Virus record (IMG/VR): IMGVR_UViG_3300037493_007233
Coordinates: 1 to 64,000 of that record
Strand: one strand, 5' to 3'
DNA from: a virus
DNA length: 64,000 nucleotides
Shown here: positions 19,493 to 58,198 of the stretch, one piece after another
Position numbering within the stretch: position 1 is the stretch's first letter
Layout: every line of letters starts with the position of its first letter
Program-made: the position numbers and the translations under genes
The notes under the pieces: model-generated
Told to the model about the DNA's origin: nothing
The model's input: the letters and a program-made list of their open reading frames with translations, nothing else
Databases searched by the model: none

Positions 19493-20581
19493 TTACTTCT
19501 CGTTTTTCAGCAAAAATTTATTGCTGATAGCTTTGAATGAAATGGACATATCATAAGATCTTATAACTACGCCCTCTCTTTCCGTATTTGGATTTAGTCC
19601 TGACTTACCCTCTGCCCATTGAAGCATGCCCTCAACTGTATGTGGAAGCAGGAAATCCAATCCTAAAAATGGAACATAGTCAAATTCCAATTTTTCGATC
19701 ATCTCGACAAATTCTCTCATGACCAATTTTTTGTTATTATCAATATCGAAAGCATTGAAGAATTTTACGGTGTGACCCTTTATCTTATAAGGGTTTCCTT
19801 GGATGCCCTCTCCTATCAATTCACCCTGTAAGCAAATATTTACACCTAAAGCGCCAAGTTTTTCTTCAATCTGAAGCTCCCTGGCAACTTTCCAAAAAGT
19901 ATTATCTGGGGTTTCAAGAAGTTCCAAATTTCTAGAACATACCCCGAACTGACCGTTTCTGAAGTAAAATGTTGCGGATGACCCGTCGAGTTTTTCAGTC
20001 ACATAAAATTTGTGGTCGCTTCTGTAATTCAATTTTAAAAATTGTTCCTCTAGATTCTGCACTCTTTCCTCGTCGGTTTTTCGGAGGAATGAAGGAAATC
20101 CACCCTTAACCTTTCCCGAAAGCTCTGCTGGAATTGGCGGTTCATATTTAAGGACATGCAGATAATCTGTGACGTCAGTTCCTTCTTCAATTAGAATAGC
20201 ATCATCCCAAGGACCAAGTTGAAGCTGATCTCCCCAGGGCTGTTGGCTGATTCCAATTTTCATATCAGAATCGTTTTCTAAAATAGATAAGGGTAAGCAA
20301 AGACCCTGTGAAACTTGACCTTTTAATTTAATTGTTTTCAATCTGAATCCCTCAAGATCGCCCATCTTTTTATATGATGATTTTCTTAGAAATTCAAAAT
20401 CTTCTTCAATGGGTAAAAAAGAATCAATTTCGAAATAAACACATAGATCACCAGGTTTAAACTCGCCTTTCTTTGTTACAACTTTCCATCCATCGACAAC
20501 AGCCACCTCGATAGCATCTGCTCCTTCAATCGGGAGTAATTCTTTTATTTTGCGTATAGACGCTAATTTTCTTTCTATCAT
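19493..20581 (-). CDS. DRB0094-type RNA ligase
   Basis: A 362-residue protein with an N-terminal OB-like region (about residues 1-150) and a C-terminal adenylyltransferase domain with TEKLDGSSATF (nucleotidyl Lys197), CLQGELIGEG (motif IIIa-like) and REGVVIRS plus SFKAISNKF (motifs IV-V). This OB-then-ligase order is that of the Deinococcus DRB0094 family, which seals nicked RNA. It is the second of three ligase-type adenylyltransferases in the window. Confidence 0.88.
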   Translation of the reverse strand: MIERKLASIRKIKELLPIEGADAIEVAVVDGWKVVTKKGEFKPGDLCVYFEIDSFLPIEEDFEFLRKSSYKKMGDLEGFRLKTIKLKGQVSQGLCLPLSILENDSDMKIGISQQPWGDQLQLGPWDDAILIEEGTDVTDYLHVLKYEPPIPAELSGKVKGGFPSFLRKTDEERVQNLEEQFLKLNYRSDHKFYVTEKLDGSSATFYFRNGQFGVCSRNLELLETPDNTFWKVARELQIEEKLGALGVNICLQGELIGEGIQGNPYKIKGHTVKFFNAFDIDNNKKLVMREFVEMIEKLEFDYVPFLGLDFLLPHTVEGMLQWAEGKSGLNPNTEREGVVIRSYDMSISFKAISNKFLLKNEK

Positions 20582-20632
20582 TCTGCCTTGTAAATTTTTT
20601 CTAAATTGTTCAAATACTCATTTTTTTCTTAT

Positions 20633-21016
20633 TCATAGCTTAAATTCAAATCGGTTTTTCATTTGTTCTAGCTTATCGACCGGAACCCCGTGCACATTCT
20701 CACCTCCGTGGCGGTTTTCAACAATCAAGGAATACACCCTGTATCCTTTTTCTGCTGCCATTTGGAAATAGGGTTCCATTTCCCACTCCTGAGTAAATGT
20801 GTTGGAGACAACAATTTTTTGTATTCCCAAAAACATCCAATCCGAAACTTGGGCTTTACACCATTCGTGGGCAGTCCTTATTTTGGTAGGGTCAAACTTG
20901 TATTCTCCGTTTACCATAAAATACTGGTCTGCTTCCACTTGTTCTCCACCTAAACTCTTGGCGAGAGTTGATTTACCTGATCCTGGTAATCCTCTTAGTA
21001 AAAATAGTTCTTTCAT
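20633..21016 (-). CDS. PNK/NEDD4BP2-like P-loop kinase
   Basis: A 127-residue protein with Walker A GLPGSGKS (9-16), a short acidic segment (EADQYF), IVVSNTF with a conserved T/N in the lid region, and ENRHGGENVHGVP. This matches the small AAA-like kinases related to the 5'-kinase domain of T4 polynucleotide kinase. No phosphatase domain is attached. It lies next to RNA ligases, which fits 5'-end healing before ligation. Confidence 0.8.
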   Translation of the reverse strand: MKELFLLRGLPGSGKSTLAKSLGGEQVEADQYFMVNGEYKFDPTKIRTAHEWCKAQVSDWMFLGIQKIVVSNTFTQEWEMEPYFQMAAEKGYRVYSLIVENRHGGENVHGVPVDKLEQMKNRFEFKL

Positions 21017-21502
21017 TTAGCTAAAATCTGTTGATGTTGAAACTCTAAGTCCGTCTACAACTTTATCGTAATATTTGGGACCGTGTGGGAGATAGCCAGG
21101 GGTTCCAATTTCCCTCTTTTTTTCGTATTCTGCATCAAATAAAATTCCATCCCATCCTAAAGCCATAGCGATGAATTCTTCAACCTCTAGCTCATCCCCA
21201 TATTCATCAACTACCCTACCAGATCTAACAAAGTTAAAAAGTTCATCCCGGTTAGAATAGTATTTGTTAGAATTGAAATTCCAACAAAATTTCCAGCCGG
21301 AAGATCTTTTCCCCAAATGGATATTTGTTCCATCTGTGAATTCTTCCCATGGATTCTCCCAAGAATTTTCCTCCCCTATGTACCGAAAATTTCTTTCTAT
21401 GAGTTGTGGGGTCAACTTCAGACCAATAATCCGTGCCTGCAGTCGATCTTTACGATCCTGCATTTCTTCTTCGGTCGGTATTCGGTAGAAATTGGTTCCC
21501 AT
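21017..21502 (-). CDS. Hypothetical protein, common phage family
   Basis: A 161-residue protein starting MGTNFYRIP and containing HLGKRSSGWKFCWN, a pattern I know from a widespread uncharacterised phage/bacterial family (MGTNYY... HIGK.S.GW.F). Acidic and aromatic-rich C-terminus. It is packed between the kinase and ClpP with no gaps. Function unknown. Confidence 0.7.
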   Translation of the reverse strand: MGTNFYRIPTEEEMQDRKDRLQARIIGLKLTPQLIERNFRYIGEENSWENPWEEFTDGTNIHLGKRSSGWKFCWNFNSNKYYSNRDELFNFVRSGRVVDEYGDELEVEEFIAMALGWDGILFDAEYEKKREIGTPGYLPHGPKYYDKVVDGLRVSTSTDFS

Positions 21503-22164
21503 TACTTTTTGTTGCGAATAATCTCGTCTATGATTCCGTACTTAACTGCTTCTTCGGCGTCCATCCAGAAATCTCGTGTTGCATCTTGCATTACAACTTC
21601 CGGATCTTTGGAACAATAAGATCCCAGAAGATCAAAGAGAATTTTATTAACCTTCTCCCATTCTTGGAAATCGATCTTTGCATCTTGAATGTTCCCGCCA
21701 AATCCTCCTGATGATTGGTGAAGCATAACTTTAGAAAATCTCAAACTGTATCTTTTGCCCTTGGTTCCAGCACCTAGTAGAATGGATCCCATTGAAGCTG
21801 CCATCCCAGTGTTTACTGTAACAATGTCAGATTTGATGTATTCCATGACATCTACCATAGAAAGTCCAGATTTAACCGACCCTCCTGGTGAATCTATATG
21901 CATAGTGATGTCCCTGTTTTCCACCGAGTCAAGGAACATTAGCTGTGCCTGAACTACTGTGGACATTTGGTCATTTACCGGTCCTGCAACCCAAAGGATT
22001 CTATCCATCATCAATCTGGAGAAGATGTCCATTTGTGTTACCCTCAATTCTCTTTCTTCAAGAATGTAAGGGGTTAAAGAAGACTCAACTTGCTTCTTGT
22101 AATAATCTAGTTTCAGTGAGCTTATTCCTTCGCTCATTGCAAATTTTTCAAATTCCTGTTTCAT
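21502..22164 (-). CDS. clpP: ClpP-like serine protease
   Basis: A 220-residue ClpP-fold protease with HIDSPGGSV (oxyanion region, 89-97), catalytic Ser124 in GMAASMGS, His149 in VMLHQSSG and Asp198 in ATRDFWMD, so the triad is complete. ClpP proteins degrade substrates fed by Clp ATPases; in phages they also serve as head-maturation proteases. No Clp ATPase or capsid gene adjoins it, so a role with the host unfoldase, perhaps on tmRNA-tagged proteins, is possible. Confidence 0.92.
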   Translation of the reverse strand: MKQEFEKFAMSEGISSLKLDYYKKQVESSLTPYILEERELRVTQMDIFSRLMMDRILWVAGPVNDQMSTVVQAQLMFLDSVENRDITMHIDSPGGSVKSGLSMVDVMEYIKSDIVTVNTGMAASMGSILLGAGTKGKRYSLRFSKVMLHQSSGGFGGNIQDAKIDFQEWEKVNKILFDLLGSYCSKDPEVVMQDATRDFWMDAEEAVKYGIIDEIIRNKK

Positions 22165-22354
22165 CTTCTACTTCTTGGTTAGTTGTGTTTTTAGACAGGA
22201 ATTCACGAATTATTTCCTGTGTTTGTGTAATTTCCCTTAATACGTCGTGTATGTTAACACTCCGATTTTTGTTTATCGTAAGGTCTTCAAGATCTGCGAT
22301 GGCTGAGCCCAGCTTATGGTCCGCCTCAAATAACAGGGTATTTGTTTTTGACAT
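22148..22354 (-). CDS. Hypothetical helical protein
   Basis: A 68-residue protein, mostly helix-forming and acidic, with no recognised motif. It overlaps the ClpP start by 17 nt and is preceded by an A-rich leader, so it is probably translated as part of the same operon. Confidence 0.55.
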   Translation of the reverse strand: MSKTNTLLFEADHKLGSAIADLEDLTINKNRSVNIHDVLREITQTQEIIREFLSKNTTNQEVEDETGI

Positions 22355-22409
22355 GATTCTATTTTTGATTTAACCACAAAAATAGATTATTCAAACGCTA
22401 AAAAAAAAT

Positions 22410-24002
22410 TTAGGAGATCTTTCTTGAAATTATAAAATCTTCAGTGACAATATGATCTACAACCCCATCAATTAGATGTCTAATTACTTGATGCGGGTAG
22501 TTGTTAATTGGCTCACCGTGTGCATTGAAGGACGTATTGAGCACAACGGGTATTCCTGAGATTTTATAGTATTCAGAGATGATCGAATGGAAGTTGGGAT
22601 TGTTTTCAGAATTAACAATCTGTGGTCTAGAAGATCTATCTAGAAGCTGGACTACAGCAGGGATGGTCTCCAGCCATTCAGTCCTTGTGTTGTAGCACAA
22701 TGTCATAAATTCCGCCGAATATTTAGACTTATCACATTCGAAGATCGAATCAGCATATTCTTCCAACACCGATGGTGCAAAAGGCATAATCTCAGTTCTC
22801 TTTAGCTTTTGGTTAAGTTTGGAGTGTGTTTCTGGATCTGTTGGCTTTACTACTATACTTCGGTTTCCTAAAGCTCTTGGCCCATATTCAGTCCTACCGA
22901 AAAAGCATCCAATAACATCACCATCCTGAATAAGCTGTGCAACTTTTTGGTATGTCATTTCTTGACACACCACATGCTCAGCATTTTCAGATAAAGGGGT
23001 TTCCCACTTTTCCTTGCCGTGAGATTCACCAAGGAATGCATTCTTTAATCTTTTGGGTCTATTGTATTCACCAATCTCATTGGCACAGATTAGAGCAGCA
23101 CCTAATGCAAGACCTCCGTCTCCCATAGAAGGGTGAATAAACATCTCATCGAAAATGTCAAGAGAATTTATATGCTGGTTTAGCTTCACATTAGCAAAAA
23201 GACCGCCAGAGAAACAAATCTTTCTGTAATCCGGATGTCTTTGTGAAAGATCAGTCAGGAAATTTTCCATAATCTCTTCAGAATATTTCTGAAGCGTAAA
23301 AGCAAAATCTTCTCTATTTCCTGGGTGATTCAAAAATCCATTATGTAAACAATATTGATCAAAAATGTAGTGGAAAATTGATTCCCAGTTGGCAGGTTGA
23401 AAACTTAAATTTCCATCGTAAGAAATACACATCTTAAGCCAATCATAGATTTTCTGCGAAAACTTTCCATGAGCAGCAAGACCAACTACTTTACCCTCAT
23501 CTTTAAGCATTGTCCAGCCTAAGAAATTTGTAGAAGCAGCCCATATACCAGCTAGTGATGCTGTCGTTGGAATGTGTTGAGAATGTATTTCCTCCATCTC
23601 TCCATTTTCACAAAGCAGAATTTTTCCTCTGCTTCTATATCCCTTACCGTCGTGGCTTACTGAGATAACCTTACCTTCAAAGCCAGAGGTCAGGTAAGAT
23701 CCCATTGTATGGCAGTGATGGTGTGAGTAAGTTCTAGATTTTTTCTGTTGATCTGAAGTAATATTCTTAATAAAATTTCTGTAATATGGTCTTGAAAGTG
23801 CTATGTAATCACAATTCTCCAAAGTTACTCCATATTCTCTATTAATTACATCAAGTGAAAGGTCCGGAAATTGCCAGTTAGAGTGACAAGCCTTAACACC
23901 TGTCATTTTCTCCTCTTCCATTGCAAATAATATTTCGCCATCAACAATCAAGGCGGTTGAAGTATCGTGTGCTCCGTAGTTTAATCCTATAATTTTACTC
24001 AT
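22410..24002 (-). CDS. NodU/CmcH/TobZ-family carbamoyltransferase, copy 3 (diverged)
   Basis: This is a 530-residue enzyme of the same family. The C-terminal signatures are intact: GRTEYGPRALGNRS, MPFAPSVL and LNTSFNAHGEP. In the N-terminal domain HHHCHT (94-99) replaces HHECHA, and the nucleotide loop reads SVSHDGKGYRSRG rather than a DGGG loop. The metal-binding histidines remain, but carbamoyl-phosphate or acceptor handling may differ. Its partner gene is upstream here, with a 4-nt overlap, the reverse of the other two cassettes. Confidence 0.9.
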   Translation of the reverse strand: MSKIIGLNYGAHDTSTALIVDGEILFAMEEEKMTGVKACHSNWQFPDLSLDVINREYGVTLENCDYIALSRPYYRNFIKNITSDQQKKSRTYSHHHCHTMGSYLTSGFEGKVISVSHDGKGYRSRGKILLCENGEMEEIHSQHIPTTASLAGIWAASTNFLGWTMLKDEGKVVGLAAHGKFSQKIYDWLKMCISYDGNLSFQPANWESIFHYIFDQYCLHNGFLNHPGNREDFAFTLQKYSEEIMENFLTDLSQRHPDYRKICFSGGLFANVKLNQHINSLDIFDEMFIHPSMGDGGLALGAALICANEIGEYNRPKRLKNAFLGESHGKEKWETPLSENAEHVVCQEMTYQKVAQLIQDGDVIGCFFGRTEYGPRALGNRSIVVKPTDPETHSKLNQKLKRTEIMPFAPSVLEEYADSIFECDKSKYSAEFMTLCYNTRTEWLETIPAVVQLLDRSSRPQIVNSENNPNFHSIISEYYKISGIPVVLNTSFNAHGEPINNYPHQVIRHLIDGVVDHIVTEDFIISRKIS

Positions 24003-24634
24003 ATTCCTAGAATGTGCTTAATGATCTCCTCATTTGGGATTGAAACCCAATCAATTGGAATATCCCATGTTTTATAAGCTTTACCGTGATTCTCAAAAAT
24101 CAAATCTGATTCCCACCAAGATTCTGATCTGGACTGTATGTCAAACTTTTTAATTTCAAAACTTGCATAAAGATCATCTATTTGTGATTCTCCTGGATAA
24201 GCAAACTTGCAAATATTTTCTCCAAATTGTTGAATCAGCCTATCTTTAAATTTTGATTCAATGGTAAGATTGCACCCAGTTTTTTCACGGTAAAGAAAAG
24301 CACTCCTTACCCATTTAGACTGAACATCAAAGCTGTAATCAACGAACTTTAGCAGAACGTTCTTCCCCTTCTCGTCGAAAACATGTTCAAATATTTTAAC
24401 CGGTGTTTCGTTCTCCCAGCCCCACACGGCTACTTTCCAGTCGGTTCTAAACCTCCTAGCGTATTTGTAATAATGAAAGGGTCTAATGTCATGGCAGGTA
24501 TTTACAAGTCCCCATGAATTACCTATTTTCTCGAAGATTTCAACTAAGTAGAATTCCGACTGACCATCTAAAACGTGAATACATGGTCCATCTATAAATT
24601 CAGCATAGCAATCTGCCTTTTTAATAATATCCAT
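23999..24634 (-). CDS. Carbamoyltransferase partner protein, copy 3 (diverged)
   Basis: A 211-residue protein matching the other two partners in outline: a beta-rich N-terminal half, a SWWESD segment where they have WWRY..R, and EEIIKHILGI at the C-terminus in place of HSEDIAREILGL. It lacks the NPS motif. It is translated just before carbamoyltransferase copy 3 (overlap ATGA). The repeated pairing with the enzyme argues for a physical or functional partnership. Confidence 0.7.
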   Translation of the reverse strand: MDIIKKADCYAEFIDGPCIHVLDGQSEFYLVEIFEKIGNSWGLVNTCHDIRPFHYYKYARRFRTDWKVAVWGWENETPVKIFEHVFDEKGKNVLLKFVDYSFDVQSKWVRSAFLYREKTGCNLTIESKFKDRLIQQFGENICKFAYPGESQIDDLYASFEIKKFDIQSRSESWWESDLIFENHGKAYKTWDIPIDWVSIPNEEIIKHILGI

Positions 24635-24644
24635 TAAAATTTTC

Positions 24645-24971
24645 TTAAATAAGAGATCTATTTACTGTCCTGTTAGCAACACCACCTATCCCTGGAAAGG
24701 CGCTAAATAAATTTTTAGCGTCCTTAATAGTTGTATCCCAAGGGGAATGGCTATTTTCATTAAACCTCTTCATGGGCAAGAAAGAATTTATTCTGTAATC
24801 TTCCAACTCTTTTTTAACCCTACATCTAACCGGATATTTGCCAAGCTCCGGCTCGTCTAATTCAATATAAAAAACTCCTGAGCCATCAGGGTTCCATCTC
24901 ACATCGGAAATAGTATAGGACTGCTTTCCGTTATCGATTAGGTATTCTTTAAGAGCAGACGTGAAATCCAT
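24645..24971 (-). CDS. Hypothetical protein
   Basis: A 108-residue soluble protein with a short N-terminal helix, a beta-rich centre (SGVFYIELDEPELGKYPVRC) and a C-terminal glycine-containing segment. No recognised family. It directly follows thioredoxin with a 1-nt overlap. Confidence 0.6.
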   Translation of the reverse strand: MDFTSALKEYLIDNGKQSYTISDVRWNPDGSGVFYIELDEPELGKYPVRCRVKKELEDYRINSFLPMKRFNENSHSPWDTTIKDAKNLFSAFPGIGGVANRTVNRSLI

Positions 24972-25270
24972 TATTTCTTGTGTGAATCGATTATTTCTTG
25001 AAACTTTGATTCGTGTTGTGCACCCGAAATTCTCTCTATTTCTTCTTCTCCTTTAAAAATAACCACGGTGGGAATATTTCTAATCCCGAATTCAGTAGTT
25101 AAAGCACTAGATTCATCAACATTAACTTTGATTATCTTTAAATCTGGGTTATTTTTTTGCAGAGAATCTAAAATTGGATGCAAAACCTTACACGGACCGC
25201 ACCAGGGTGCCCAAAAATCAACTATTGTTAAATCCCCATCCAGTTCTTTAACGAATTCTAAAATTTCCAT
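24971..25270 (-). CDS. Thioredoxin
   Basis: A 99-residue thioredoxin-fold protein. The active site is WCGPC (23-27) after VDFWAP, the cis-proline is in RNIPTVVIF, and the length is standard for a single-domain thioredoxin. It would reduce disulfides, including those of the ribonucleotide reductase encoded in this window, and could recruit host or phage reductases. Confidence 0.93.
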   Translation of the reverse strand: MEILEFVKELDGDLTIVDFWAPWCGPCKVLHPILDSLQKNNPDLKIIKVNVDESSALTTEFGIRNIPTVVIFKGEEEIERISGAQHESKFQEIIDSHKK

Positions 25271-25319
25271 CAGTCTAAATACTTTCTATTTTATATTACC
25301 AGGGTCTAACATTATTTCA

Positions 25320-25640
25320 TCACATGGTGAAAGTTTGGGTCATATCTGGATTGGTCCTATAAATAAACTGTGGACCTGGTGACATAATTACAGAAATTCC
25401 ATCAGAGAGTGTTTGCAAGCCCTGGATAAAGTTTTGGACGTCGTCTTTTTTCGCTGGTGGAAAATTAAAATGAACCATAACATCATTCACAATATCATCC
25501 AAAGATTTTTCAAATTCCCCAGTGTCGTGAAATGACATGTATTTCTCGTACTTCTTTACGAAATCTTTAATTTCAGCTTGCTCTACCTCAGATAAAGATA
25601 GGTTTGAAACAAAGTCATCAAATTCTAAAATTCTTCTCAT
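25320..25640 (-). CDS. Small protein with capsid-targeting-like leader
   Basis: A 106-residue protein. The N-terminus MRRILEFDDFVSNLSLSE fits the recurring leader (basic, then F-x-x-F-hydrophobic, ending acidic). The rest is helical and acidic with a moderately hydrophobic C-terminal half. It stands alone between thioredoxin and a divergent plus-strand gene. The leader suggests a virion-internal location; the function is unknown. Confidence 0.6.
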   Translation of the reverse strand: MRRILEFDDFVSNLSLSEVEQAEIKDFVKKYEKYMSFHDTGEFEKSLDDIVNDVMVHFNFPPAKKDDVQNFIQGLQTLSDGISVIMSPGPQFIYRTNPDMTQTFTM

Positions 25641-25661
25641 GAAACCATTTCTAATATTTTA

Positions 25662-25669
25662 GATATATA
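25662..25669 (+). promoter_or_regulatory. GATATATA promoter-like element (plus strand)
   Basis: GATATATA 26 nt upstream of the ATG of the 107-residue plus-strand gene. Confidence 0.45.
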
Positions 25670-25695
25670 TTTAATCAATTTATAAACTTACTACA

Positions 25696-26019
25696 ATGAC
25701 AGAAGAAAACATCGACCCGGATCAGGAATTTTCAATTCAAGACAGCACAGAAGAATTTGAAACTGGTGAAGAATCATCTAACGATTACCAACCAGCTGAG
25801 ACAGATTTCGATCAAGATTCTGCAGTAGCCGATCAAGACTACGATCAAGTAACCGAACCAGCAGACCAGCAATCATTTTCTGACACCTCTGATATTTCAC
25901 AGCCAGCTCAGAGTATTGAAGCATCTACACAAATTTCGGAACCCGAACAAAAAACCCCATCACCACAAAGTTTTAGGGTAATGAGGTTTGAGGATTTCGT
26001 TAGCCAGCCGAACGATTAA
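25696..26019 (+). CDS. Acidic, disordered protein with C-terminal targeting-like peptide
   Basis: A 107-residue protein that is Asp/Glu/Gln/Ser/Pro-rich and almost certainly disordered up to about residue 90. It ends SFRVMRFEDFVSQPND, which matches the leader seen at the N-terminus of other proteins (compare MRRILEFDDFVS of the divergent neighbour). It is one of only three plus-strand genes. The build suits a scaffold- or core-like protein, but that is inference. Confidence 0.6.
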   Translation: MTEENIDPDQEFSIQDSTEEFETGEESSNDYQPAETDFDQDSAVADQDYDQVTEPADQQSFSDTSDISQPAQSIEASTQISEPEQKTPSPQSFRVMRFEDFVSQPND

Positions 26020-26198
26020 TCTTCGGAAGAAGTACTTCTACCAAGATCTCTTCTGATAAGCTTTCTCACGTAATGTGAAACTGAAACTGGAGGCTCACCT
26101 TTAGTTAAAGCCTGCTTTGAGATCTTTTTTCCAAGCTCTTCTAAATCTTCTGTAGAAAGAAGTACTTGTATTTTTTCGGTTTTTTCTTCTCTTGCCAT
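26016..26198 (-). CDS. Small ribbon-helix-helix-like protein
   Basis: A 60-residue basic/acidic mixed protein: an N-terminal strand EKIQVLLSTEDLEELGKKI, then a helix and SVSHYVRKLIRRDLGR. A short strand followed by two helices with a final Y-x-R-K-L-I-R-R is the layout of CopG/Arc-type DNA-binding proteins. It ends 4 nt inside the convergent plus-strand gene. It may be a transcriptional regulator. Confidence 0.55.
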   Translation of the reverse strand: MAREEKTEKIQVLLSTEDLEELGKKISKQALTKGEPPVSVSHYVRKLIRRDLGRSTSSED

Positions 26199-26232
26199 TT
26201 TTATTGGTGGTTTTAATTTTAATTGCTATCTG

Positions 26233-27693
26233 TTACTCGAATTTTATTCCGGTATGTGGTTTACCATTAGACTTGTATTGATTGTAGTCTTTATCGAAAT
26301 TTTCTGTTGCTATAAACTTAGTATCTGGATTTACCATGACACCCATAGCTTTCATCGTATTTCTATTTATTAGGAGGGGAGTACTTTTATGGGTTCTATC
26401 TAATATAGCAACTTTCATCGTGTAGGGATTGCCTAAGAATTTTATTTCCATTTCTACCGTTGGATACTTAATAACTCCTTTACTGTGGATGCCCCCTGAG
26501 ATATCAGTTTGCCCAATTATCTTCTTTTTAAATTTCTTTTTTCCTATTTCGAAATATAGGGTTTTTCCTTTTTCTTCGACCTTATCTCCGTGAAGTACAC
26601 AGCAAAGAGTCCCATTCCCTGTATCAAATTTCCCTATCACTTTTCCTAGTCCTTCAACCTCAACAGTTTCCATATATCCAACCTCGATGCTGGGAAGAAT
26701 CCAGTTATTTTGATCCATTAAGAAATCAATCACGTCATTTACAATAGGCTTTCCAAGAGCTTCAGAAATTCCCTCCGTTCCAGGCGAAGAATTTACTTCT
26801 AACACATAAGGCTTGTTGGTCTTCTGATCGATCATGATATCAACTCCACTCCAATTACACCCAGTTTCCCTGGCTGCTTTGAAAGCAATTTCCTCAATTT
26901 CTTTAGTTAATTTTACTTTTTCAACAGTTCCACCCAGAGAATAGTTAGTTCTAAAGTCTTTACCTACGGAATTTCTTCTCATTGCTCCTATAATTCTATA
27001 GTTTCCAGGATGATCTAAATCTCTTATATCGATGTTTTTTATTAGAACGTGAATTCTAAGATCATATTTAGAGTCTATTTTTTCCTGCAACAGAACTTCG
27101 CCGGTCTCATCCAGTTTCTTAATAGTCTGGAAAACAGATTTTAATGAATTAAAAGAATCTACTATTGAAACTCCGATTCCTTTCGATCCTGTTAATAACT
27201 TCATAACAACAGGAAATTTTCCTCCTATAGTCTTTACTGCTTCCTCCATTTTTTCTTCTGAAGAAAGGATTGCATATCTGGGAACAGGAACCCCAACATT
27301 TTTTAAAATTTGACACGTGGAAAATTTATTCTCACAAATTTCCATAGGAAGAAGTCTGTTGACTATAAAATATCTTCCGGCTTCAAGTGTTCTTAATATC
27401 TCTTTATTGTGAGTGCTTTTAAGAACCCCAGATCTTGCTACTATTATAGTAGAATCGGGGTAAGCACTAGCTTCTTGTTTTCCGTCGCTAATTAAATATC
27501 CTCCATCGATTTTTTTTAACTCAGTTAAATCTATGTCTAGGACATTAATCTTAATTTTCTTCTTTTTACATTCTTTTTCGAGGGACCGGGAAAATTCATT
27601 TGTTCCACCTCCAATAAGAACAACCATATTGGGTTTTACTGACCTAGCTTCGTTCAGAAATGTTTCGAAGTCTACTATCCTATTAAAGGTCAT
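26233..27693 (-). CDS. RimK-like ATP-grasp ligase fused to RimB-like protease domain, with targeting-like leader
   Basis: 486 residues in three parts. Residues 1-16 (NRIVDFETFLNEA) are a capsid-targeting-like leader. Residues about 20-330 are an ATP-grasp ligase of RimK type: VVMKLLTGSKGIGVS (162-176), VLLQEKI, then VLEVNSSPG (297-305) with the metal-binding E and N. Residues about 335-475 match COG4067/RimB aspartic-protease-like proteins: KFDTGNGTLCCVLHG (355-369) and PLLINR (439-444). RimK adds Glu residues to ribosomal protein S6, and RimB is its usual genetic partner. Fusion plus leader suggests a protein-modifying enzyme carried in the virion. Confidence 0.8.
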   Translation of the reverse strand: MTFNRIVDFETFLNEARSVKPNMVVLIGGGTNEFSRSLEKECKKKKIKINVLDIDLTELKKIDGGYLISDGKQEASAYPDSTIIVARSGVLKSTHNKEILRTLEAGRYFIVNRLLPMEICENKFSTCQILKNVGVPVPRYAILSSEEKMEEAVKTIGGKFPVVMKLLTGSKGIGVSIVDSFNSLKSVFQTIKKLDETGEVLLQEKIDSKYDLRIHVLIKNIDIRDLDHPGNYRIIGAMRRNSVGKDFRTNYSLGGTVEKVKLTKEIEEIAFKAARETGCNWSGVDIMIDQKTNKPYVLEVNSSPGTEGISEALGKPIVNDVIDFLMDQNNWILPSIEVGYMETVEVEGLGKVIGKFDTGNGTLCCVLHGDKVEEKGKTLYFEIGKKKFKKKIIGQTDISGGIHSKGVIKYPTVEMEIKFLGNPYTMKVAILDRTHKSTPLLINRNTMKAMGVMVNPDTKFIATENFDKDYNQYKSNGKPHTGIKFE

Positions 27694-27714
27694 TATAAAT
27701 AATTATTTTTAGAC

Positions 27715-27722
27715 TATATATC
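27715..27722 (-). promoter_or_regulatory. GATATATA promoter-like element
   Basis: 21 nt upstream of the ATP-grasp fusion gene. Confidence 0.5.
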
Positions 27723-27736
27723 TTCCCAGATAGGAT

Positions 27737-28006
27737 TTAAAAGGGAATTTCCTCGAGTAATAACTGGACATCTATTGCTTGTTTTATTTTACCTATCTCA
27801 TGGCATTTTTCATATTCCTCTTCTAATAAGAAGAAGTCAAGCAACTCCTGCAGTCTTTCACACTTGAAAGCTGAGGTAAACCATTTGTCTGTAATAAATC
27901 CTAGCTTATTCTCAATTAGCATGCAATAGTTTTCATACATGAAATCTCTATACTCCTCGAATCCATCAGGATCTATTCCCTCAAAAATGTGATCGTTGGT
28001 TATCAT
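27737..28006 (-). CDS. Hypothetical small acidic protein
   Basis: An 89-residue acidic helical protein. A segment EEEYEKCHEIGKIKQAI near the C-terminus resembles EENYELCAEILVLAKEL in the 34145-34492 protein, so the two may belong to one small phage family. It follows the DNA polymerase C-terminal gene and a 66-residue gene in the same operon. Confidence 0.6.
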   Translation of the reverse strand: MITNDHIFEGIDPDGFEEYRDFMYENYCMLIENKLGFITDKWFTSAFKCERLQELLDFFLLEEEYEKCHEIGKIKQAIDVQLLLEEIPF

Positions 28007-28181
28007 TTTTTTCTTTTACTAAACTTTCTACCCCTTTTACATAGTCCATGGAATCAGCTGATCCAATAACCGTGTCTGGCCTGTATAAATACATGTTTAA
28101 AAATTCCTCATCGGAATTCATCTTTTCTCTGATCTCCCTGAGCTTATCAAGTTCTGGTAGATATCTTTTATTAAATCCCAT
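27981..28181 (-). CDS. Hypothetical protein
   Basis: A 66-residue charged helical protein starting MGFNKRYLPELDKLREIREK. It overlaps the DNA polymerase C-terminal gene by 1 nt upstream and the next gene by 26 nt downstream. No recognised family. Confidence 0.55.
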   Translation of the reverse strand: MGFNKRYLPELDKLREIREKMNSDEEFLNMYLYRPDTVIGSADSMDYVKGVESLVKEKNDNQRSHF

Positions 28182-29320
28182 TAGAAGAGTGTGTTAATCA
28201 TAAACAGATTTGGACTGATTGGATTGTGGCCCATAACTTCGATGAATCTATTGATTGGATCCAGAATTGTTTTTGTGAACTGCTCATCATAATCTATAGG
28301 AGGAGCAAATTCATAAGGATAAGCACCTTGGGCATAAGCAAATACGTTATTGTCCATAGATGATTTCGTTTTCACAAAGTAAAATCTAACCTTGTCTCCG
28401 CTTCTAAGTAGTGGGTATTTGTCTTTGTACTTTGAATTGTTGAGCAGGTAATTGTGGTATCCAGAAGCTCTTACGTGGATTGGGCAACCTTTTGCAACTT
28501 CTAATCCAGTGCTGTCATTCAATATGAATTTCTCCATGTTATTAACAGAAATACCAGCAGAGATGTTTTCCGGCTGTTGAGCTTTGAAATCTTTTTTGAT
28601 TGCCTTTAACTCGGTAACGAATTCTCTTAGATTGAAACTTCTTCCCTTTGAAAAAATGAATTTTGTTAGGAATAGAAGCTTTTCTCTTACAAAAGAAGGC
28701 GTACCTCCTTTAATCATCTCCACCCCAGTTGTTTTGATGGCGGATAAAGGTTCAGAGTGTACTCCGTCAGAGTAAACTATGTTTGTAACGTATTTCTTCT
28801 TACCTAGGAAAATTCCATTGATCGATAAGGTTTCAAGCTCAAAATCTTGGTAATTATCGGTACCCCATTTGGTTGAATACAGATCAAAACACTTCTTGAG
28901 ATATCCTGTCAATCTATATTCGTTGATCTTGAGAATAAGATCCTTATCCTCTCCCTTCCAATCACATGAAGCTACTACTTCCTGGAAAGTAACATAATTT
29001 GAATCCGTGTCTCCGTACACAACCATCGGGCGGTGTATTTTCTTGACTTCAGTAAGACCCAATTTCTCGTGCAATTCTGCATCGAGATGCCAATACTCAT
29101 GGAAATATTTGTGAAGAATCTTTTCAGAGTGCTTGATCAAATCCTGGCCCTGCAGGGTAACTGCTTCAGCTACCTCAGGATTAAAGCAAGCAAACCAGTT
29201 ATTACCAATCGCACCGTAGATTGAGTTCATGGTAAGCTTTACCGCTTGCTCCTCGTTTTTGAGCTCGTTTTTTAAAGCAGTCAGCTCCTCAATTTTCTTT
29301 TTTAATTCCTCTTTTTCCAT
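28181..29320 (-). CDS. 43: Family B DNA polymerase, C-terminal part (palm motifs B/C and thumb)
   Basis: 379 residues. Motif B is KLTMNSIYGAIG (28-39) and motif C is YGDTDSNYV (102-110) with the catalytic aspartates; the rest is thumb. The exonuclease and motif A are missing here and occur in a separate gene at 47696-49099. The first 27 residues (KEELKKKIEELTALKNEL) form a probable coiled coil that could pair with the helical C-terminus of the other part. It follows the gp45-like clamp gene by 3 nt, as expected of a replication operon. Confidence 0.93.
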   Translation of the reverse strand: MEKEELKKKIEELTALKNELKNEEQAVKLTMNSIYGAIGNNWFACFNPEVAEAVTLQGQDLIKHSEKILHKYFHEYWHLDAELHEKLGLTEVKKIHRPMVVYGDTDSNYVTFQEVVASCDWKGEDKDLILKINEYRLTGYLKKCFDLYSTKWGTDNYQDFELETLSINGIFLGKKKYVTNIVYSDGVHSEPLSAIKTTGVEMIKGGTPSFVREKLLFLTKFIFSKGRSFNLREFVTELKAIKKDFKAQQPENISAGISVNNMEKFILNDSTGLEVAKGCPIHVRASGYHNYLLNNSKYKDKYPLLRSGDKVRFYFVKTKSSMDNNVFAYAQGAYPYEFAPPIDYDEQFTKTILDPINRFIEVMGHNPISPNLFMINTLF

Positions 29321-29323
29321 ATT

Positions 29324-30085
29324 TTATTTTTCAATCACACCAACCGCAGTCGAAGTATCGGTTTGGTCTGAAAAGAATACGATCCTGTTTTCGTGGATGT
29401 AGCAAAAACAAGATTCGGTATCCACGTAATTCAAGTGTGATTTGTAAATAGATGAATCTGCAGACTCATCCGAAGTAATGTCCGATTTTCCAATATTTAA
29501 TTTGTAATCAAACGAATCTCCAGTTACTTTTACCGAATCACTAGTCACTCGGAAAACCAAAAGCTCCTCAGAGTTTGACTCCATTCCGCAAAGTGAAATT
29601 AGAGAAGAGAAATCGGAGTTGTAGATTTTAAAGTTGCTAAGTGCATCTTCTTTTGAATGTACAATTCCTAAGATCTTGTCTTCAACATACGATAGGAGAG
29701 AAAGATCAGCACATCTTAATTTGATTTTCAAGGAAGCTGAAACTACCTGTAGTTCAGTTGCTACACACTCACCTTCAACGGTAGAGGTCGAGATATCGAT
29801 AAAAATATCCTCTTCCGTTCTAAAGTGCTTAAAGCAGTCCATCAACCTTGTAACATCCATCAACCCAATTTTGATCCTATCACATTTAAGAGATGCAAAG
29901 TCTGTGAGTGCGTCGAAAATCTGGTCGTTGCTGATGCCCGCATATTTCATTACAGATTTATCGGGGGTGTGAACTTTTGAGAAAAGCTTGTCTTCGGTCA
30001 ATTCCAGTAAAACACTCTTGTCTACTACTTTAAGTTTCTTCAGGAAAGAAATTAGATTACTGGTACTTGTTACTCTTATCTTCAT
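29324..30085 (-). CDS. 45: gp45-like sliding clamp
   Basis: A 253-residue protein of PCNA/gp45 build: two similar beta-alpha halves, an acidic pI, KIRVTSTSNLISFLKKL at the start and a beta-rich C-terminal half. T4 gp45 is 228 residues. Position directly before the polymerase C-terminal gene supports the call. The clamp loader genes gp44/62 are not in this window. A weak GACATATAAAAA sequence lies upstream. Confidence 0.75.
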   Translation of the reverse strand: MKIRVTSTSNLISFLKKLKVVDKSVLLELTEDKLFSKVHTPDKSVMKYAGISNDQIFDALTDFASLKCDRIKIGLMDVTRLMDCFKHFRTEEDIFIDISTSTVEGECVATELQVVSASLKIKLRCADLSLLSYVEDKILGIVHSKEDALSNFKIYNSDFSSLISLCGMESNSEELLVFRVTSDSVKVTGDSFDYKLNIGKSDITSDESADSSIYKSHLNYVDTESCFCYIHENRIVFFSDQTDTSTAVGVIEK

Positions 30086-30141
30086 TATTTTATTTTTGTT
30101 TTTATATGTCGTTAATGTTTAAAATTTCGATCTTTTACCTA

Positions 30142-31512
30142 TTATTCAGAATCTCCATCAACCTCTTCGGGTGTAAAAATTTCAATGTCTGTGTTAATTC
30201 TCAGTGGCTCAGATCCTACAGGGATCAAAGATGTTGATTTACCCTTTAATTTAATTGGGCCCAAACTTTTAACAACAGCTTCTTGCTTTTTGATCAACGC
30301 CTGGGTTTCCTTGATCAACTGCTTGATCCTTTTGATTTCTGCTTCTGTTTCTACAATATGATCAGAGGATAGCTTTACAATTTGAATGTGAGAAAGCTTT
30401 GCGGAAATCCAGGAAACAAACTGGGAGAGAAATGTAGTTATCTCCTCGTTAGTTCTTTTCTTTTGACTCATAAAAATCAAGAATTTAAGTTTTGCTTCTA
30501 GAAATTCTAGGTCAAACTTTAAATTTTCAAAATCTTTAGCAAGTCTTCGTAGCTTAACTGTTTCTAGATGAATCTTGAAAGCATCAAGATATTCTTTTAC
30601 GGAGTTAAACTGAGCCACCCCTCCGTCTTTAATTAGCACAACATCCTCCTTCACTATGATCTGTGTTAACTTCTTTACCAGTTCAACTACAGATTGAAAT
30701 TCCTTTGGCTGTATCTTTGAGAACCAAATGGTTACATCACACTTACTCTGTGAGTTGTTATTCAATTTAAACTCGTGCCCATAAGAGGAAAGCTTATTGA
30801 TAAGCTTCTCCATAAAAGAATCATATCTCATTACAGGTGGAAGATCGAAAATCCTGATTGTTCTTTTTGTGGCGTTGCTTTCAAATCCACTTTCAAGCAA
30901 CCAAACATTTTCCTCGTTTTCGAACTTATAGATTTTTCCGGTAAAATCCCTGAAATAAGGTTTAAGTATCTTGTTCTTACCCTCTAGATATTCAATTATA
31001 TCTTCCATTTTACGGGGAAGGATGTTGCTTCTATATCCAACAGCAATACCGATTATATGGGTAAGCAAACCAACAGGCACTTCTACATGTAGCCAGTCGT
31101 GTCCGCCCTCCTCGTTTTTCTCATTGAGATCTGAGTGGCGGTTTACAATATTCTTAACCTCTGGGTTAATCCTTACCGAAGTATATCGGGCAGCTGATGG
31201 GCTGGGATTTACTGGGGATCCAAAAAATCCATCTCCTTCGAGAACCTGATACGAGCATCCAAAAGGCCTGGCCAATTTTGAAATAGCCCCAGATAATGAT
31301 GAATCACCATGGTGATACAAGCCGGTTCTGATTACTTCTCCGACTAGACCAATTGTCTTGTTGTAATGTGATGGGCTGTTTTCCAGAATGATTCTCTGAA
31401 CCGGAGTCAACGAATCATAAAAATTAGGAATACCTCTTGATTGCAAAACGTACAAAGCATATTCTCTGTACTTATGATTAATCTGATCTGAAATACTTAG
31501 TGTCGAACTCAA
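30142..31512 (-). CDS. 52: Type II DNA topoisomerase, gp52-like subunit
   Basis: A 456-residue GyrA/ParC-type breakage-reunion subunit of phage length. The catalytic Tyr110 is in SAARYTSVR, preceded by PVQR, LYHHGD and GDGFFGSP. The long helical segment (about residues 310-430) is the expected coiled coil. It pairs with the gp39-like ATPase encoded at 35728-37512. The T4 enzyme relaxes DNA and helps start replication. Confidence 0.93.
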   Translation of the reverse strand: MSSTLSISDQINHKYREYALYVLQSRGIPNFYDSLTPVQRIILENSPSHYNKTIGLVGEVIRTGLYHHGDSSLSGAISKLARPFGCSYQVLEGDGFFGSPVNPSPSAARYTSVRINPEVKNIVNRHSDLNEKNEEGGHDWLHVEVPVGLLTHIIGIAVGYRSNILPRKMEDIIEYLEGKNKILKPYFRDFTGKIYKFENEENVWLLESGFESNATKRTIRIFDLPPVMRYDSFMEKLINKLSSYGHEFKLNNNSQSKCDVTIWFSKIQPKEFQSVVELVKKLTQIIVKEDVVLIKDGGVAQFNSVKEYLDAFKIHLETVKLRRLAKDFENLKFDLEFLEAKLKFLIFMSQKKRTNEEITTFLSQFVSWISAKLSHIQIVKLSSDHIVETEAEIKRIKQLIKETQALIKKQEAVVKSLGPIKLKGKSTSLIPVGSEPLRINTDIEIFTPEEVDGDSE

Positions 31513-31563
31513 AACCTTATTCTTTCAGTATTGTATGAAAGGTAGGTTTAGATGTTTCTAATA

Positions 31564-32712
31564 TTATGCAGTCTTCTTAGATTGATCCTTTTCTTTTGTC
31601 TGTACTAAAGAAGCAGATGCTAAAACTTTAGGTGAGATATCGTCGATCTGAACCAGAGCAAAATCTATTTCCTGCTGATTTTTGGCTTTCATGTCGGCAA
31701 GGATCTCACGAAGGTCTGCAGAGTTTTTCAAAACTATACATCCTGCCGAATGTGAATCCACGGTTGGGGTAGATCCTGATCTTAATCCTCTGTGAATATT
31801 TATACCACCCTGACCATTTTCTTCCTTTCCAGGAGAATATGTGGTAAAGGTAGCTTTAGAGGGATCGTCTACTGGTTCATATCTCTGTATTTTAATACTT
31901 TCAGCTTGAACAAGTGCTTCGTATTGACCTCTATGTTTGCCTATCTTATATCTATAAACCCCGGGTTGCATGATAGCTGGTCCATTAGGATTAACAACAT
32001 CTTTTGCTCCAGTTGCAACATAGTAATTACGGAAAGATTTAACCAAAAAGAAAGGTCCAGGAACTGTAGTTGCAGGAAAGAATTCAACATTCTTTTCTTT
32101 CTGTGGGCTCATGAGGAAAACCACATCAGTAAATCTGTTAGGATAATTCTTTTTGGTTGAAATTTTATTTCTGAGACCAACAAGATTGTACTGATCGAAA
32201 TTCATTTCCTTAGAGAGTCCTTCAGAATCTAAAATTGCCTTTAAACCATCCCAAGTTATAACATTAACATCATCAAATTCATAGTCTGAACTCTGTGGTA
32301 GTAATTTATAATCTGGCTTCTGGGTTTTATTTCCAGCAGCATTAAGATTCTTAATGTTTTCGTCTGCAGCTTTTTTATTAGCGGAGTCTTTAGAAAGATC
32401 TGCTTCGACCTCTTCAGCGGTTGCCGGTGAATCCGATGGTATTATTTTAGCTTCTTCCCATGCTGCTTTAAGGTTAGGATCAGCATCGACAGCAGCAAGT
32501 AAATCCCCACCAAATTTGGTTGCGAAGAAAAGGTCACGAATAAATGTTTTACTAACATTTTCTTTTTTACCAGCTTCCTTACTAGAACCTTTTAAAGCTC
32601 CCTTAACTTCTGCTCCTTGGGCTAGTGCTTTTTGAATTATTGTTGGCTGGGCAAGGGAAGCCTCGTTTATTTCACCAAATTCGCTAAATGATAAGATTCT
32701 TTTGGGCATCAA
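31564..32712 (-). CDS. L,D-transpeptidase-like protein with targeting-like leader
   Basis: 382 residues. The N-terminus MPKRILSFSEFGEINEA is a capsid-targeting-like leader. An Ala/Lys/Glu-rich low-complexity region follows (about 20-130). The C-terminal domain has INIHRG (304-309) and SHSAGC (320-325), the His and Ser-x-Gly-Cys layout of YkuD L,D-transpeptidases, with Cys325 as the likely nucleophile. These enzymes cross-link or edit peptidoglycan. A virion-borne copy could act on the cell wall at entry, or it may be a structural relic. MM at the start leaves a 3-nt ambiguity. Confidence 0.75.
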   Translation of the reverse strand: MMPKRILSFSEFGEINEASLAQPTIIQKALAQGAEVKGALKGSSKEAGKKENVSKTFIRDLFFATKFGGDLLAAVDADPNLKAAWEEAKIIPSDSPATAEEVEADLSKDSANKKAADENIKNLNAAGNKTQKPDYKLLPQSSDYEFDDVNVITWDGLKAILDSEGLSKEMNFDQYNLVGLRNKISTKKNYPNRFTDVVFLMSPQKEKNVEFFPATTVPGPFFLVKSFRNYYVATGAKDVVNPNGPAIMQPGVYRYKIGKHRGQYEALVQAESIKIQRYEPVDDPSKATFTTYSPGKEENGQGGINIHRGLRSGSTPTVDSHSAGCIVLKNSADLREILADMKAKNQQEIDFALVQIDDISPKVLASASLVQTKEKDQSKKTA

Positions 32713-42134: not shown

Positions 42135-42566
42135 TTATCGATTAGATTTATTTATCCTCCTCCACGAAAAATCAGTATCCAGTTTGAAGTGTCCAAGAAA
42201 TTGATATTTCCCGTTCCATTCTTCAGGTGAAATTAAGCTACAGAATTTTTCACCATCATCTTTAATATAAACATAAATTTCAGAACCAACGTTTGGTTCA
42301 AACGAAAGTTTGGAGTCCCAAATCATTTCGTTATCTGAAAATTCTTGAAACAAGGACTCAATTTGTTCCTTGATTTCTTCAGCCCTTTTTGAAAACTTGT
42401 GATTAGCCTTTGCTAAACTATTCGCCTTAAACAATGCTACATCAGGGAGATCAATCTTAGGCCCAGATATATTTGTCGAATAAGTTTTTAGAAAAGAATC
42501 ATATAGGTTTTTCTGAGGATCAAAGACTACTGCATCAGGCAGATTTTTCTTCTTTCTTCTTTCCAT
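42135..42566 (-). CDS. DUF2452-like protein
   Basis: 143 residues. PDAVVFDPQKNLYDSFL, a LPDVALFKA segment, a helical middle and LSFEPNVGSEIYVY with SPEEWN match my memory of DUF2452, a small family found chiefly in Bacteroidota. Function unknown. It overlaps the adenylate kinase by 32 nt, an unusually long overlap; no later Met preserves the conserved N-terminus. Confidence 0.65.
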   Translation of the reverse strand: MERRKKKNLPDAVVFDPQKNLYDSFLKTYSTNISGPKIDLPDVALFKANSLAKANHKFSKRAEEIKEQIESLFQEFSDNEMIWDSKLSFEPNVGSEIYVYIKDDGEKFCSLISPEEWNGKYQFLGHFKLDTDFSWRRINKSNR

Positions 42567-43185
42567 CTTTGGTCTTTAATCCTAACGCTTTTGTAACTGC
42601 TTTGTATACTTCTTCGCTCCCTTGTGAAGCGTCGAATTTTTTTAATCTTCTACTCTTCTTATAAAGGTCGATTAAAGGAGAAGTTTTTTCCTCGTATGTT
42701 CTAAATCTCTTACCTACCACCTCAGGGTCTTTATCGTCTTCCCTGTTTTCTTTCTCTGCTCTTTTTAGAATTCTCTTTTTGGCTGTTTCCTCATCTAAAT
42801 CTAAATAGATCGCATGATTTAGACCTACCCCAAGTTTTCCTAAGAGTGAATCAAGCATCCCTGCTTGTTTGATTGTTCTTGGGAATCCATCCAGAATAAT
42901 TCCTTTAGAAAGATCTACTTTGCCAAGTTCTTTTCTCAGCATTTTGACCATAGTTTTATCATCAGCATATTCGCCTTTAGCAATTTTTGCTTTAAGCTCT
43001 TTATCGTCAGAATTTCTGATCAAATCTCCGGTTGAAATGTGGGTGAATCCGTTTCTCTCCGCCAATTTGGTCGAAAATGTTCCTTTACCCGAACCAGGAG
43101 GTCCCATGATAATTAGGATTTTTCCTTGAACATCGGGTAATTCCCTTTCGTTCAAAAACTCTGCAAAATTTTTAACGGTTTCCAT
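42535..43185 (-). CDS. adk: Adenylate kinase with targeting-like leader
   Basis: 216 residues. The first 15 (METVKNFAEFLNERE) are not part of an adenylate kinase and fit the recurring leader. The kinase follows: GPPGSGKGT P-loop, HISTGDLIR, ILDGFPRT, then a short lid and RFRTYEEKTSPLIDLY. The enzyme interconverts AMP, ADP and ATP. An unusual GATAAATAC sequence lies just upstream of the ATG. With such a leader the enzyme may be packaged in the head, which I have not seen described. Confidence 0.9.
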   Translation of the reverse strand: METVKNFAEFLNERELPDVQGKILIIMGPPGSGKGTFSTKLAERNGFTHISTGDLIRNSDDKELKAKIAKGEYADDKTMVKMLRKELGKVDLSKGIILDGFPRTIKQAGMLDSLLGKLGVGLNHAIYLDLDEETAKKRILKRAEKENREDDKDPEVVGKRFRTYEEKTSPLIDLYKKSRRLKKFDASQGSEEVYKAVTKALGLKTKDGKKKEEKSA

Positions 43186-49154: not shown

Positions 49155-49472
49155 ATGTCTAGCAGGGTTAAAAGTTTCGAAAATTATATTCAAGAAAGCT
49201 TCCCACCAGGAGTGGTAGAGGTTCCTGGCCAGTGGTACAAGGATAATGTCAATTCAAGAAACTACAGGCCAGCTCACACGCAGATGCCAAGTGTTGTTGA
49301 CGATCTTTACAACAGGACAGATCTTTATACTTATTTAGACCAATTGGCTGAGGAGGAAGAGTTTCAGAAAATGCTATCTTCGAATGATAAAGATTCGAAG
49401 AAAATTGTGAATTACGTTAAAAAAAGAATTCACGAGGAGCTTTCACATTCTGCAAAGGTAGATTCTAAATAA
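49155..49472 (+). CDS. Small protein with targeting-like leader
   Basis: 105 residues. MSSRVKSFENYIQESFPPG fits the recurring leader. The rest is hydrophilic, helical and acidic, with a PSVVDDLYNRTDLYTYLDQL segment. It is 14 nt upstream of the amidase gene on the plus strand. Probably a virion-internal or late protein; no enzymatic motif. Confidence 0.6.
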   Translation: MSSRVKSFENYIQESFPPGVVEVPGQWYKDNVNSRNYRPAHTQMPSVVDDLYNRTDLYTYLDQLAEEEEFQKMLSSNDKDSKKIVNYVKKRIHEELSHSAKVDSK

Positions 49473-57677: not shown

Positions 57678-58198
57678 TTTAATTTGTAATATTTGCCAGC
57701 AGAATTTACATAATCAACATAGATCTCTTCTTCCTCAGTTTTGGGATTATTTATGTCAAAATCCTTACCAAAACTCTTCTTTCCGTTTTCTATTGATTTT
57801 TTATAAAAAACCTCGTGATCTTTTTCTTCGTTCCTACCGGTCTTCTTAATATCTTCTCCCCACTTTTGAAGAACCTCTTGCTTTTTACCTTTTAATGTTT
57901 TAGAATCGTATTTTTCTAAATCAGATCTTTTACCAAATAGATTAGCAACTCCTCTTCCAAGGCCTAGAAGTCCAGAGGCAGCCCCCGATACTAATCTTTG
58001 TAATGCCTGGCCAGGTCTTTCTGCCATGGCATCGAACCAATCCTTTCCTCCTTCGTAACCTGCTACCTCAGCTTCTGGGTTTTCAGCTTTAACTCTAGCC
58101 TGCATTTTGCCGAGCTTCCTCGCCACAATATTCTTATCCCCGGTTACTGAGTATTTTGATTCGTTTAAAAATCCTTGAAAATTTAAGATTTTGGTCAT
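57674..58198 (-). CDS. Probable virion protein with targeting-like leader
   Basis: 174 residues. MTKILNFQGFLNESKYSVTG fits the leader very well. A glycine-rich hydrophobic stretch (SGAASGLLGLGRGVANLFG, about 90-108) may be membrane-active. The C-terminal half is Lys/Glu-rich. It is coupled to the nucleotidyltransferase by a 4-nt overlap and has a GATATATA element 19 nt upstream. Confidence 0.65.
   Translation of the reverse strand: MTKILNFQGFLNESKYSVTGDKNIVARKLGKMQARVKAENPEAEVAGYEGGKDWFDAMAERPGQALQRLVSGAASGLLGLGRGVANLFGKRSDLEKYDSKTLKGKKQEVLQKWGEDIKKTGRNEEKDHEVFYKKSIENGKKSFGKDFDINNPKTEEEEIYVDYVNSAGKYYKLK

What the first reader, a model, noticed from the sequence alone, without database searches (positions are those of the whole stretch)
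26233..27693. RimK-type ATP-grasp ligase fused to a RimB-type protease domain
In bacteria rimK and the COG4067/RimB gene are neighbours acting on ribosomal protein S6. Here both occur in one 486-residue protein with a targeting-like leader. If delivered on entry it could add and trim Glu tails on a host protein such as S6. I am not aware of this fusion in phages.
Basis: partly seen in the sequence, partly recalled or inferred. Interest (0 to 1): 0.72.

Follow-up and report, generated by a model that had tools for sequence, protein, structure and literature searches.

The report
Phage-packaged glutamate ligase–protease fusion
A large virus of bacteria carries one protein that joins an enzyme which adds glutamate tails to proteins with an enzyme which cuts them off, behind an address tag that probably packs it into the virus head for delivery into the host; the fusion has been reported in marine phages since 2008, but I found no earlier mention of the address tag.

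Summary
The 486-residue ORF lies on the minus strand (26233-27693) and contains a RimK-type ATP-grasp ligase and a C-terminal RimB/RloA-type retropepsin domain. Profile search, structure prediction and fold search agree. Catalytic residues of both halves are invariant in 31 aligned phage sequences. The leader is real: it fits the pattern of the T4 IPII/IPIII capsid-targeting sequence (MKTYQEFIAE|A), and that pattern is strongly enriched at N-termini of the fusion family and of other proteins on the same contigs. In Yersinia phage YerA41 a near-full-length relative was found in purified virions by mass spectrometry (PMC7354516), although its leader is not canonical.

The fusion is not new to phages. 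Monier et al. 2008 (PMC2530865) reported marine phage contigs with RimK plus C-terminal DUF785 (PF05618) and suggested S6 modification. A bacterial fusion in the opposite order (RimBK) was shown to be an active protease in 2025 (PMC11957791).

Best reading: a virion-packaged writer/eraser of poly-glutamate tails, injected with the DNA to modify host proteins. Packaging is well supported; injection is inferred; S6 as target is only the default guess. Interest is moderate.

The parts
26233..27693 (-). whole gene, 486 aa RimK-RimB fusion protein
   Evidence: open frame ATG to stop; full-length homologues in IMG/VR contigs
27649..27693 (-). N-terminal capsid-targeting-like leader, residues 1-15 MTFNRIVDFETFLNE, predicted prohead-protease cut after Glu15
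   Evidence: same [FY]xxF[IL]xEA pattern as T4 IPII/IPIII MKTYQEFIAEA; Glu15 in 29/31 homologues, residue 13 L/I/V in 30/31; positional enrichment
26716..27636 (-). RimK-like pre-ATP-grasp and ATP-grasp ligase, residues 20-326
   Evidence: PF08443 2e-33; PDB RimK 7qyr profile E 4e-49; Foldseek RimK TM-score 0.82-0.87 normalised by target
26839..26841 (-). Asp285, predicted Mg ligand of the ATP-grasp site
   Evidence: invariant in 31 sequences
26791..26799 (-). Glu299-Val300-Asn301, predicted Mg ligands of the ATP-grasp site
   Evidence: invariant in 31 sequences
26305..26688 (-). RimB/RloA-type retropepsin-like aspartic protease domain, residues 336-463
   Evidence: profile to 9g59/9g58/2pma; Foldseek to 2pma, 9g59, 9g58, HIV protease
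26617..26625 (-). catalytic DTG motif, residues 357-359 (Asp357)
   Evidence: DTGN invariant in 31 sequences; corresponds to catalytic D31 in the DTG of Pseudomonas RimB (PMC11957791)
26236..26304 (-). C-terminal tail, residues 464-486 (ends KPHTGIKFE), conserved in the jumbo-phage-like clade only
   Evidence: alignment A3; little predicted structure

Best explanation
A virion cargo enzyme. The leader docks the protein to the scaffold core of the prohead in the way a T4 capsid-targeting sequence does, and the prohead protease cuts it after Glu15 (LNE|A). The mature enzyme stays in the head and enters the host with the DNA. There the ATP-grasp half adds L-glutamate to the C-terminus of one or more host proteins, and the tethered retropepsin half trims poly-Glu tails and/or stimulates the ligase. 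Shown by sequence and fold: both domains, intact catalytic residues, and a positionally conserved leader with the T4 pattern. Shown in a relative only (literature): presence in purified YerA41 virions. Inferred: cleavage, injection, activity, and the host translation apparatus (S6 first) as target.
For: RimK domain. Retropepsin domain. Invariant D285/E299/N301 and DTGN357-360 in 31 sequences. Leader pattern in the first 25 residues of 19/31 fusions versus 0 in 14,149 other residues, and in 9/232 other proteins of the same contigs versus about 0.09 expected; same pattern in T4 IPII and IPIII, where the targeting sequence and the L/I-x-E cleavage motif are experimentally established (PMC9026906). 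A gp21-family prohead protease lies on 6 of 10 contigs carrying the fusion. YerA41 g112 'Ribosomal protein modification protein' is marked as an LC-MS/MS phage-particle protein (PMC7354516 Table 3) and the gene is annotated 'structural protein'. RimB trims poly-Glu and stimulates RimK (PMC11957791).
Against: The only relative with virion MS (YerA41) has a leader extension without the canonical T4 pattern (read from the GN1 copy), so the MS result does not test the leader. The match g112 = YerA41_066 rests on gene order and description, not on a shared identifier. No gp21-family protease was found in the window's own 73.6 kb record (a fragment, so uninformative). Some members lack the leader motif (L030, L031), and a lineage has lost the DTG (L036, L093), so neither feature is universal. 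Poly-Glu-contact residues of RloA are only partly kept: R137 is R433, R114 is Tyr410 in this protein (Arg in 28/31), K46 is Gly/Ser throughout. The host is unknown and there is no substrate evidence.
Confidence: 0.6

Rival explanations
1. The enzyme works in the phage-producing cell or inside the prohead: it glutamylates and trims phage head or core proteins, or makes free poly-glutamate inside the head, and its presence in virions is a by-product of that.
For: A leader that places it in the prohead core is equally consistent with a job during head assembly; RimB-stimulated RimK makes free poly-alpha-glutamate (PMC11957791). YerA41 g112 is a middle-expressed gene.
Against: T4 proteins carrying this type of leader are delivered into the host (PMC9026906). 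Only 29 of 50,697 phage records match the protein, mostly the ligase domain alone, so it is not needed for head assembly in general.
Confidence: 0.2
2. It is made during infection and acts in the cytoplasm like the leaderless cyanophage RimK proteins; the leader is a general N-terminal feature of this phage group with another role.
For: Leaderless phage RimK proteins exist (cyanophages); the gene sits among replication genes (DNA polymerase, topoisomerase, clamp) in the window and in marine relatives.
Against: The leader matches an experimentally defined head-targeting signal, including the residue at the protease cut, and a relative is in virions.
Confidence: 0.13
3. The C-terminal domain is a dead or purely regulatory RimB domain that only binds and stimulates the ligase.
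For: L036 and L093 have lost the DTG while keeping the ATP-grasp; RimB also stimulates RimK (PMC11957791); one poly-Glu-contact Arg is Tyr410 here.
Against: The DTG is invariant in all 31 aligned members including this one.
Confidence: 0.1

Closest known systems
Phage RimK + C-terminal DUF785 on GOS marine contigs (Monier et al. 2008, PMC2530865)
   Same: Same domain order (ATP-grasp then DUF785/PF05618), beside regA/PolB on phage contigs; S6 modification already proposed
   Different: In 2008 DUF785 was a domain of unknown function, and the passages read do not mention a leader; the window protein belongs to a jumbo-phage-like clade about 33% identical to the marine clade
YerA41 / vB_Yru_GN1 'structural protein' (QSM00767.1, BES79878.1)
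   Same: RimK-RimB fusion, 34.5% identical over residues 62-456, with DTG; the YerA41 copy was found in virions
   Different: N-terminal extension lacks the canonical [FY]xxF[IL]xEA pattern
Bacterial RimBK hybrid (Desulfotalea psychrophila; PMC11957791)
   Same: RimK and RimB domains in one protein; protease activity on poly-Glu S6 shown
   Different: Opposite order (RimB first) and cellular
Pseudomonas RimB-RimK pair and RloA retropepsins (PMC11957791, PMC12239564)
   Same: Same folds and catalytic motifs
   Different: Separate genes; RloA is secreted with a signal peptide; the phage version has DTGN(G/S) where the solved relatives have DTGA
T4 internal proteins IPII/IPIII
   Same: Leader pattern with the L/I-x-E cut; packaged in the head and delivered to the host
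   Different: The T4 cargoes are unrelated proteins, not ligases or proteases

Membership tests
RimK-family alpha-L-glutamate ligase | RimK ATP-grasp domain by profile and fold | tested here: met
   PF08443 E 2e-33; 7qyr profile 4e-49; Foldseek 7qys TM-score 0.87. TIGR00768 scores 140.4 against a cut-off of 143.4, just under
RimK-family alpha-L-glutamate ligase | ATP/Mg catalytic residues | tested here: met
   D285, E299, N301, K123, K165, R248, N250 invariant in 31; their roles are assigned from general knowledge of ATP-grasp enzymes
RimK-family alpha-L-glutamate ligase | S6 as acceptor and glutamate as donor | not testable with these tools
   no substrate assay; the S6-ligase equivalog model scores 90.5 against a cut-off of 331, so S6 specificity cannot be assumed
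RimB / PF05618 retropepsin | retropepsin fold of the RloA/RimB type | tested here: met
RimB / PF05618 retropepsin | catalytic DTG | tested here: met
   DTG357-359 invariant
RimB / PF05618 retropepsin | Pfam gathering score for PF05618 reached by this sequence alone | tested here: not met
   14.7 bits against 27; 20 of 31 members match at E<=0.01. A sensitivity limit of the model, not a missing defining feature: fold and active site are met
RimB / PF05618 retropepsin | poly-Glu contact residues K46, R114, R137 (RloA numbering, PMC12239564) | tested here: inconclusive
   R137 kept (R433), R114 is Y410 here but R in 28/31, K46 is G/S
T4-type capsid-targeting sequence | 10-19 residue N-terminal leader ending in L/I-x-E | tested here: met
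   residues 1-15 ...FETFLNE|A
T4-type capsid-targeting sequence | gp21-family prohead protease in the same phage | tested here: inconclusive
   found on 6 of 10 relatives' contigs; not on the window's 73.6 kb record
T4-type capsid-targeting sequence | leader removed in the virion | not testable with these tools
   needs virion proteomics

The most novel reading that the evidence does not exclude
Many jumbo and T4-like phages inject a pre-made enzyme that both writes and erases poly-glutamate tails, resetting host ribosomes or other proteins before any phage gene is expressed; the same leader marks a wider set of injected cargo (an adenylate kinase and several unknown proteins in this window).
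Probability: 0.4. Interest if true: 0.65.

Novelty: new member of a known kind. Interest (0 to 1): 0.42.

Why it matters
If the leader works as predicted, a simple N-terminal pattern identifies cargo injected by uncultured large phages, and this protein would put protein glutamylation and its removal among the first actions of infection, comparable to ADP-ribosylation by T4 Alt (general knowledge) and to the T7 kinase, which phosphorylates S6 among other targets (as noted in PMC2530865). The domain fusion by itself is already published.

Tried and rejected
Single-sequence Pfam/PHROG scan of the C-terminal part: too weak on its own; resolved with a family profile. Chance as the explanation of the leader: rejected by positional counts and shuffles; a first, looser pattern on the window alone gave only weak enrichment. 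Bacterial origin of the RimK-RimB-order fusions found in genome contigs: the ten hits look like phage contigs binned into MAGs, several with T4-like polymerase, clamp or clamp loader next door. Gp21-family protease in the window's own record: none; a ClpP-like protease at 21502-22164 that also matches phage head-maturation proteases was found and not assigned to this role. Nucleotide match of 20000-32000 to public phage records: none. Paper search for capsid targeting plus ATP-grasp in phages: none.

Full report
What is there. The ORF is real and intact but runs on the minus strand, 27693 down to 26233. It lies in a 73.6 kb viral record. Its polymerase fragment is closest to those of huge uncultured phages of 460-735 kb, and a relative 66% identical in this protein sits on a 434 kb contig. 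The window therefore looks like a piece of a jumbo phage; the host is unknown.

The ligase half. Residues 20-326 are a RimK-type enzyme by Pfam (2e-33), by profile against solved RimK (4e-49) and by predicted fold (TM-score 0.82-0.87 to RimK structures, including the RimK-RpsF complex 5zk6). Predicted ATP/Mg residues are invariant across 31 sequences. The S6-ligase equivalog model is far below its cut-off, so the substrate cannot be read from sequence.

The protease half. The single sequence gives only a sub-threshold PF05618 match. The family profile removes the doubt: it hits the retropepsins RloA2 (9g59), RloA (9g58) and Lpg0085 (2pma). The predicted domain (mean pLDDT 83.6) matches those three first and HIV protease next. 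The DTG motif is invariant. The RloA study assigns basic residues to poly-Glu binding and finds K46, R114 and R137 conserved in RimB (PMC12239564). Here R137 is kept (R433), R114 is Arg in 28 of 31 homologues but Tyr410 in this protein, and K46 is replaced by Gly/Ser throughout. That mapping is my inference from the equal 23-residue spacing of the two arginines in 2pma, 9g59 and the phage proteins. Specificity may have shifted.

The family. A profile-guided scan of viral contigs found 217 loci; 80 were kept and nearly all carry the full fusion. Two clades are visible in the alignment: a jumbo-phage-like one with a conserved C-terminal tail, and a marine T4-like one that includes Pelagibacter phage Mosig, where the gene lies beside regA-, clamp- and polymerase-like genes. 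In genome contigs ten such fusions were found, apparently phage contigs binned into bacterial and archaeal genomes. In one lineage (L036, L093) the DTG has become DDN, so the protease is presumably dead while the ligase is kept. In L033/L034 a nucleotidyltransferase-like domain is fused in front.

The leader. T4 IPII and IPIII begin MKTYQEFIAEA; the first ten residues of IPIII are the capsid-targeting sequence, and gp21 cuts after L/I-x-E (PMC9026906). The window protein begins MTFNRIVDFETFLNEA. The pattern [FY]xx[FY][ILV]xE[AGS], written to fit T4, occurs in the first 25 residues of 19 of 31 representative fusions and never in their remaining 14,149 residues. In 232 other proteins of the same contigs it occurs 9 times at the N-terminus against about 0.09 expected from its rate elsewhere or from shuffles. 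Caveat: the pattern was relaxed after the family leaders had been seen; the strict form [FY]xx[FY][IL]xEA still gives 15 of 31 against 0, but only 1 of the 232 others. Glu15 is kept in 29 of 31. Proteins of this window with a leader of this kind include an adenylate kinase (42535-43185). A gp21-family protease is on 6 of 10 relatives' contigs. Independently, the YerA41 relative is listed among virion proteins by LC-MS/MS (PMC7354516); the link g112 = YerA41_066 is by gene order and description. Its leader is not of the T4 pattern (GN1 copy), so this supports packaging of the family, not the leader mechanism itself.

Prior art. Monier et al. 2008 reported the fusion in marine phage contigs, with the same domain order, and proposed S6 modification (PMC2530865); they also noted the same order in Halobacteria and the opposite order in Synechococcus. 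Little et al. 2025 showed that RimB is a retropepsin, that it trims poly-Glu S6 and stimulates RimK, and that the bacterial hybrid RimBK is an active protease but gave no observed S6 glutamylation (PMC11957791). The finding's suggestion of novelty therefore fails. A search for capsid targeting together with ATP-grasp enzymes and phages in the held papers found none, so the leader on this enzyme may be a new point; subscription papers were not searchable.

Verdict. Observation confirmed; interpretation partly supported. The fusion is a new member of a known kind, with virion delivery as the interesting and testable addition.

Noticed in passing
28181-29320 (-) and 47696-49099 (-): Family B DNA polymerase apparently split into two genes about 18 kb apart: a C-terminal part (phrog_262 positions 491-840) and an N-terminal part recognised by eye from the ORF translation.
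   Followed up: partly
6989-8581, 11140-12726, 22410-24002 (-): Three similar carbamoyltransferase-type genes of about 530 aa in one phage fragment (Pfam confirmed for the third only), each with a neighbouring 211-242-aa protein.
   Followed up: partly
42535-43185 (-), 57674-58198 (-), 49155-49472 (+): Adenylate kinase and two unknown proteins carry a similar leader (FAEFLNER, FQGFLNES, FENYIQES): candidate injected cargo.
   Followed up: partly
25696-26019 (+): Very acidic 107-aa ORF on the opposite strand beside the fusion, ending in a leader-like FRVMRFEDFVSQ; no family match.
   Followed up: partly
L036 3944-5734, L093 872-2635: RimK-RimB homologues whose DTG has become DDN, with an extended C-terminus: natural loss of the protease site.
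   Followed up: partly
L033 908-3076, L034 1728-3896: Nucleotidyltransferase-like domain fused in front of RimK-RimB in a 722-aa protein.
   Followed up: no
L001 5470-6444, L017 5457-6446: A second RimK-like ATP-grasp gene directly downstream of the fusion, with its own leader-like N-terminus.
   Followed up: no
26236-26304 (-): Tail after the protease domain (consensus KGxPHAGIxFE) conserved in the jumbo-phage-like clade and absent in the marine clade; it ends in or near Glu, so self-glutamylation is conceivable.
   Followed up: no
54404-56320 (-): RNA ligase domain fused to a HIGH-type nucleotidyltransferase domain in one 638-aa protein.
   Followed up: no
21502-22164 (-): ClpP-like serine protease that also matches phage head-maturation protease families.
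   Followed up: partly
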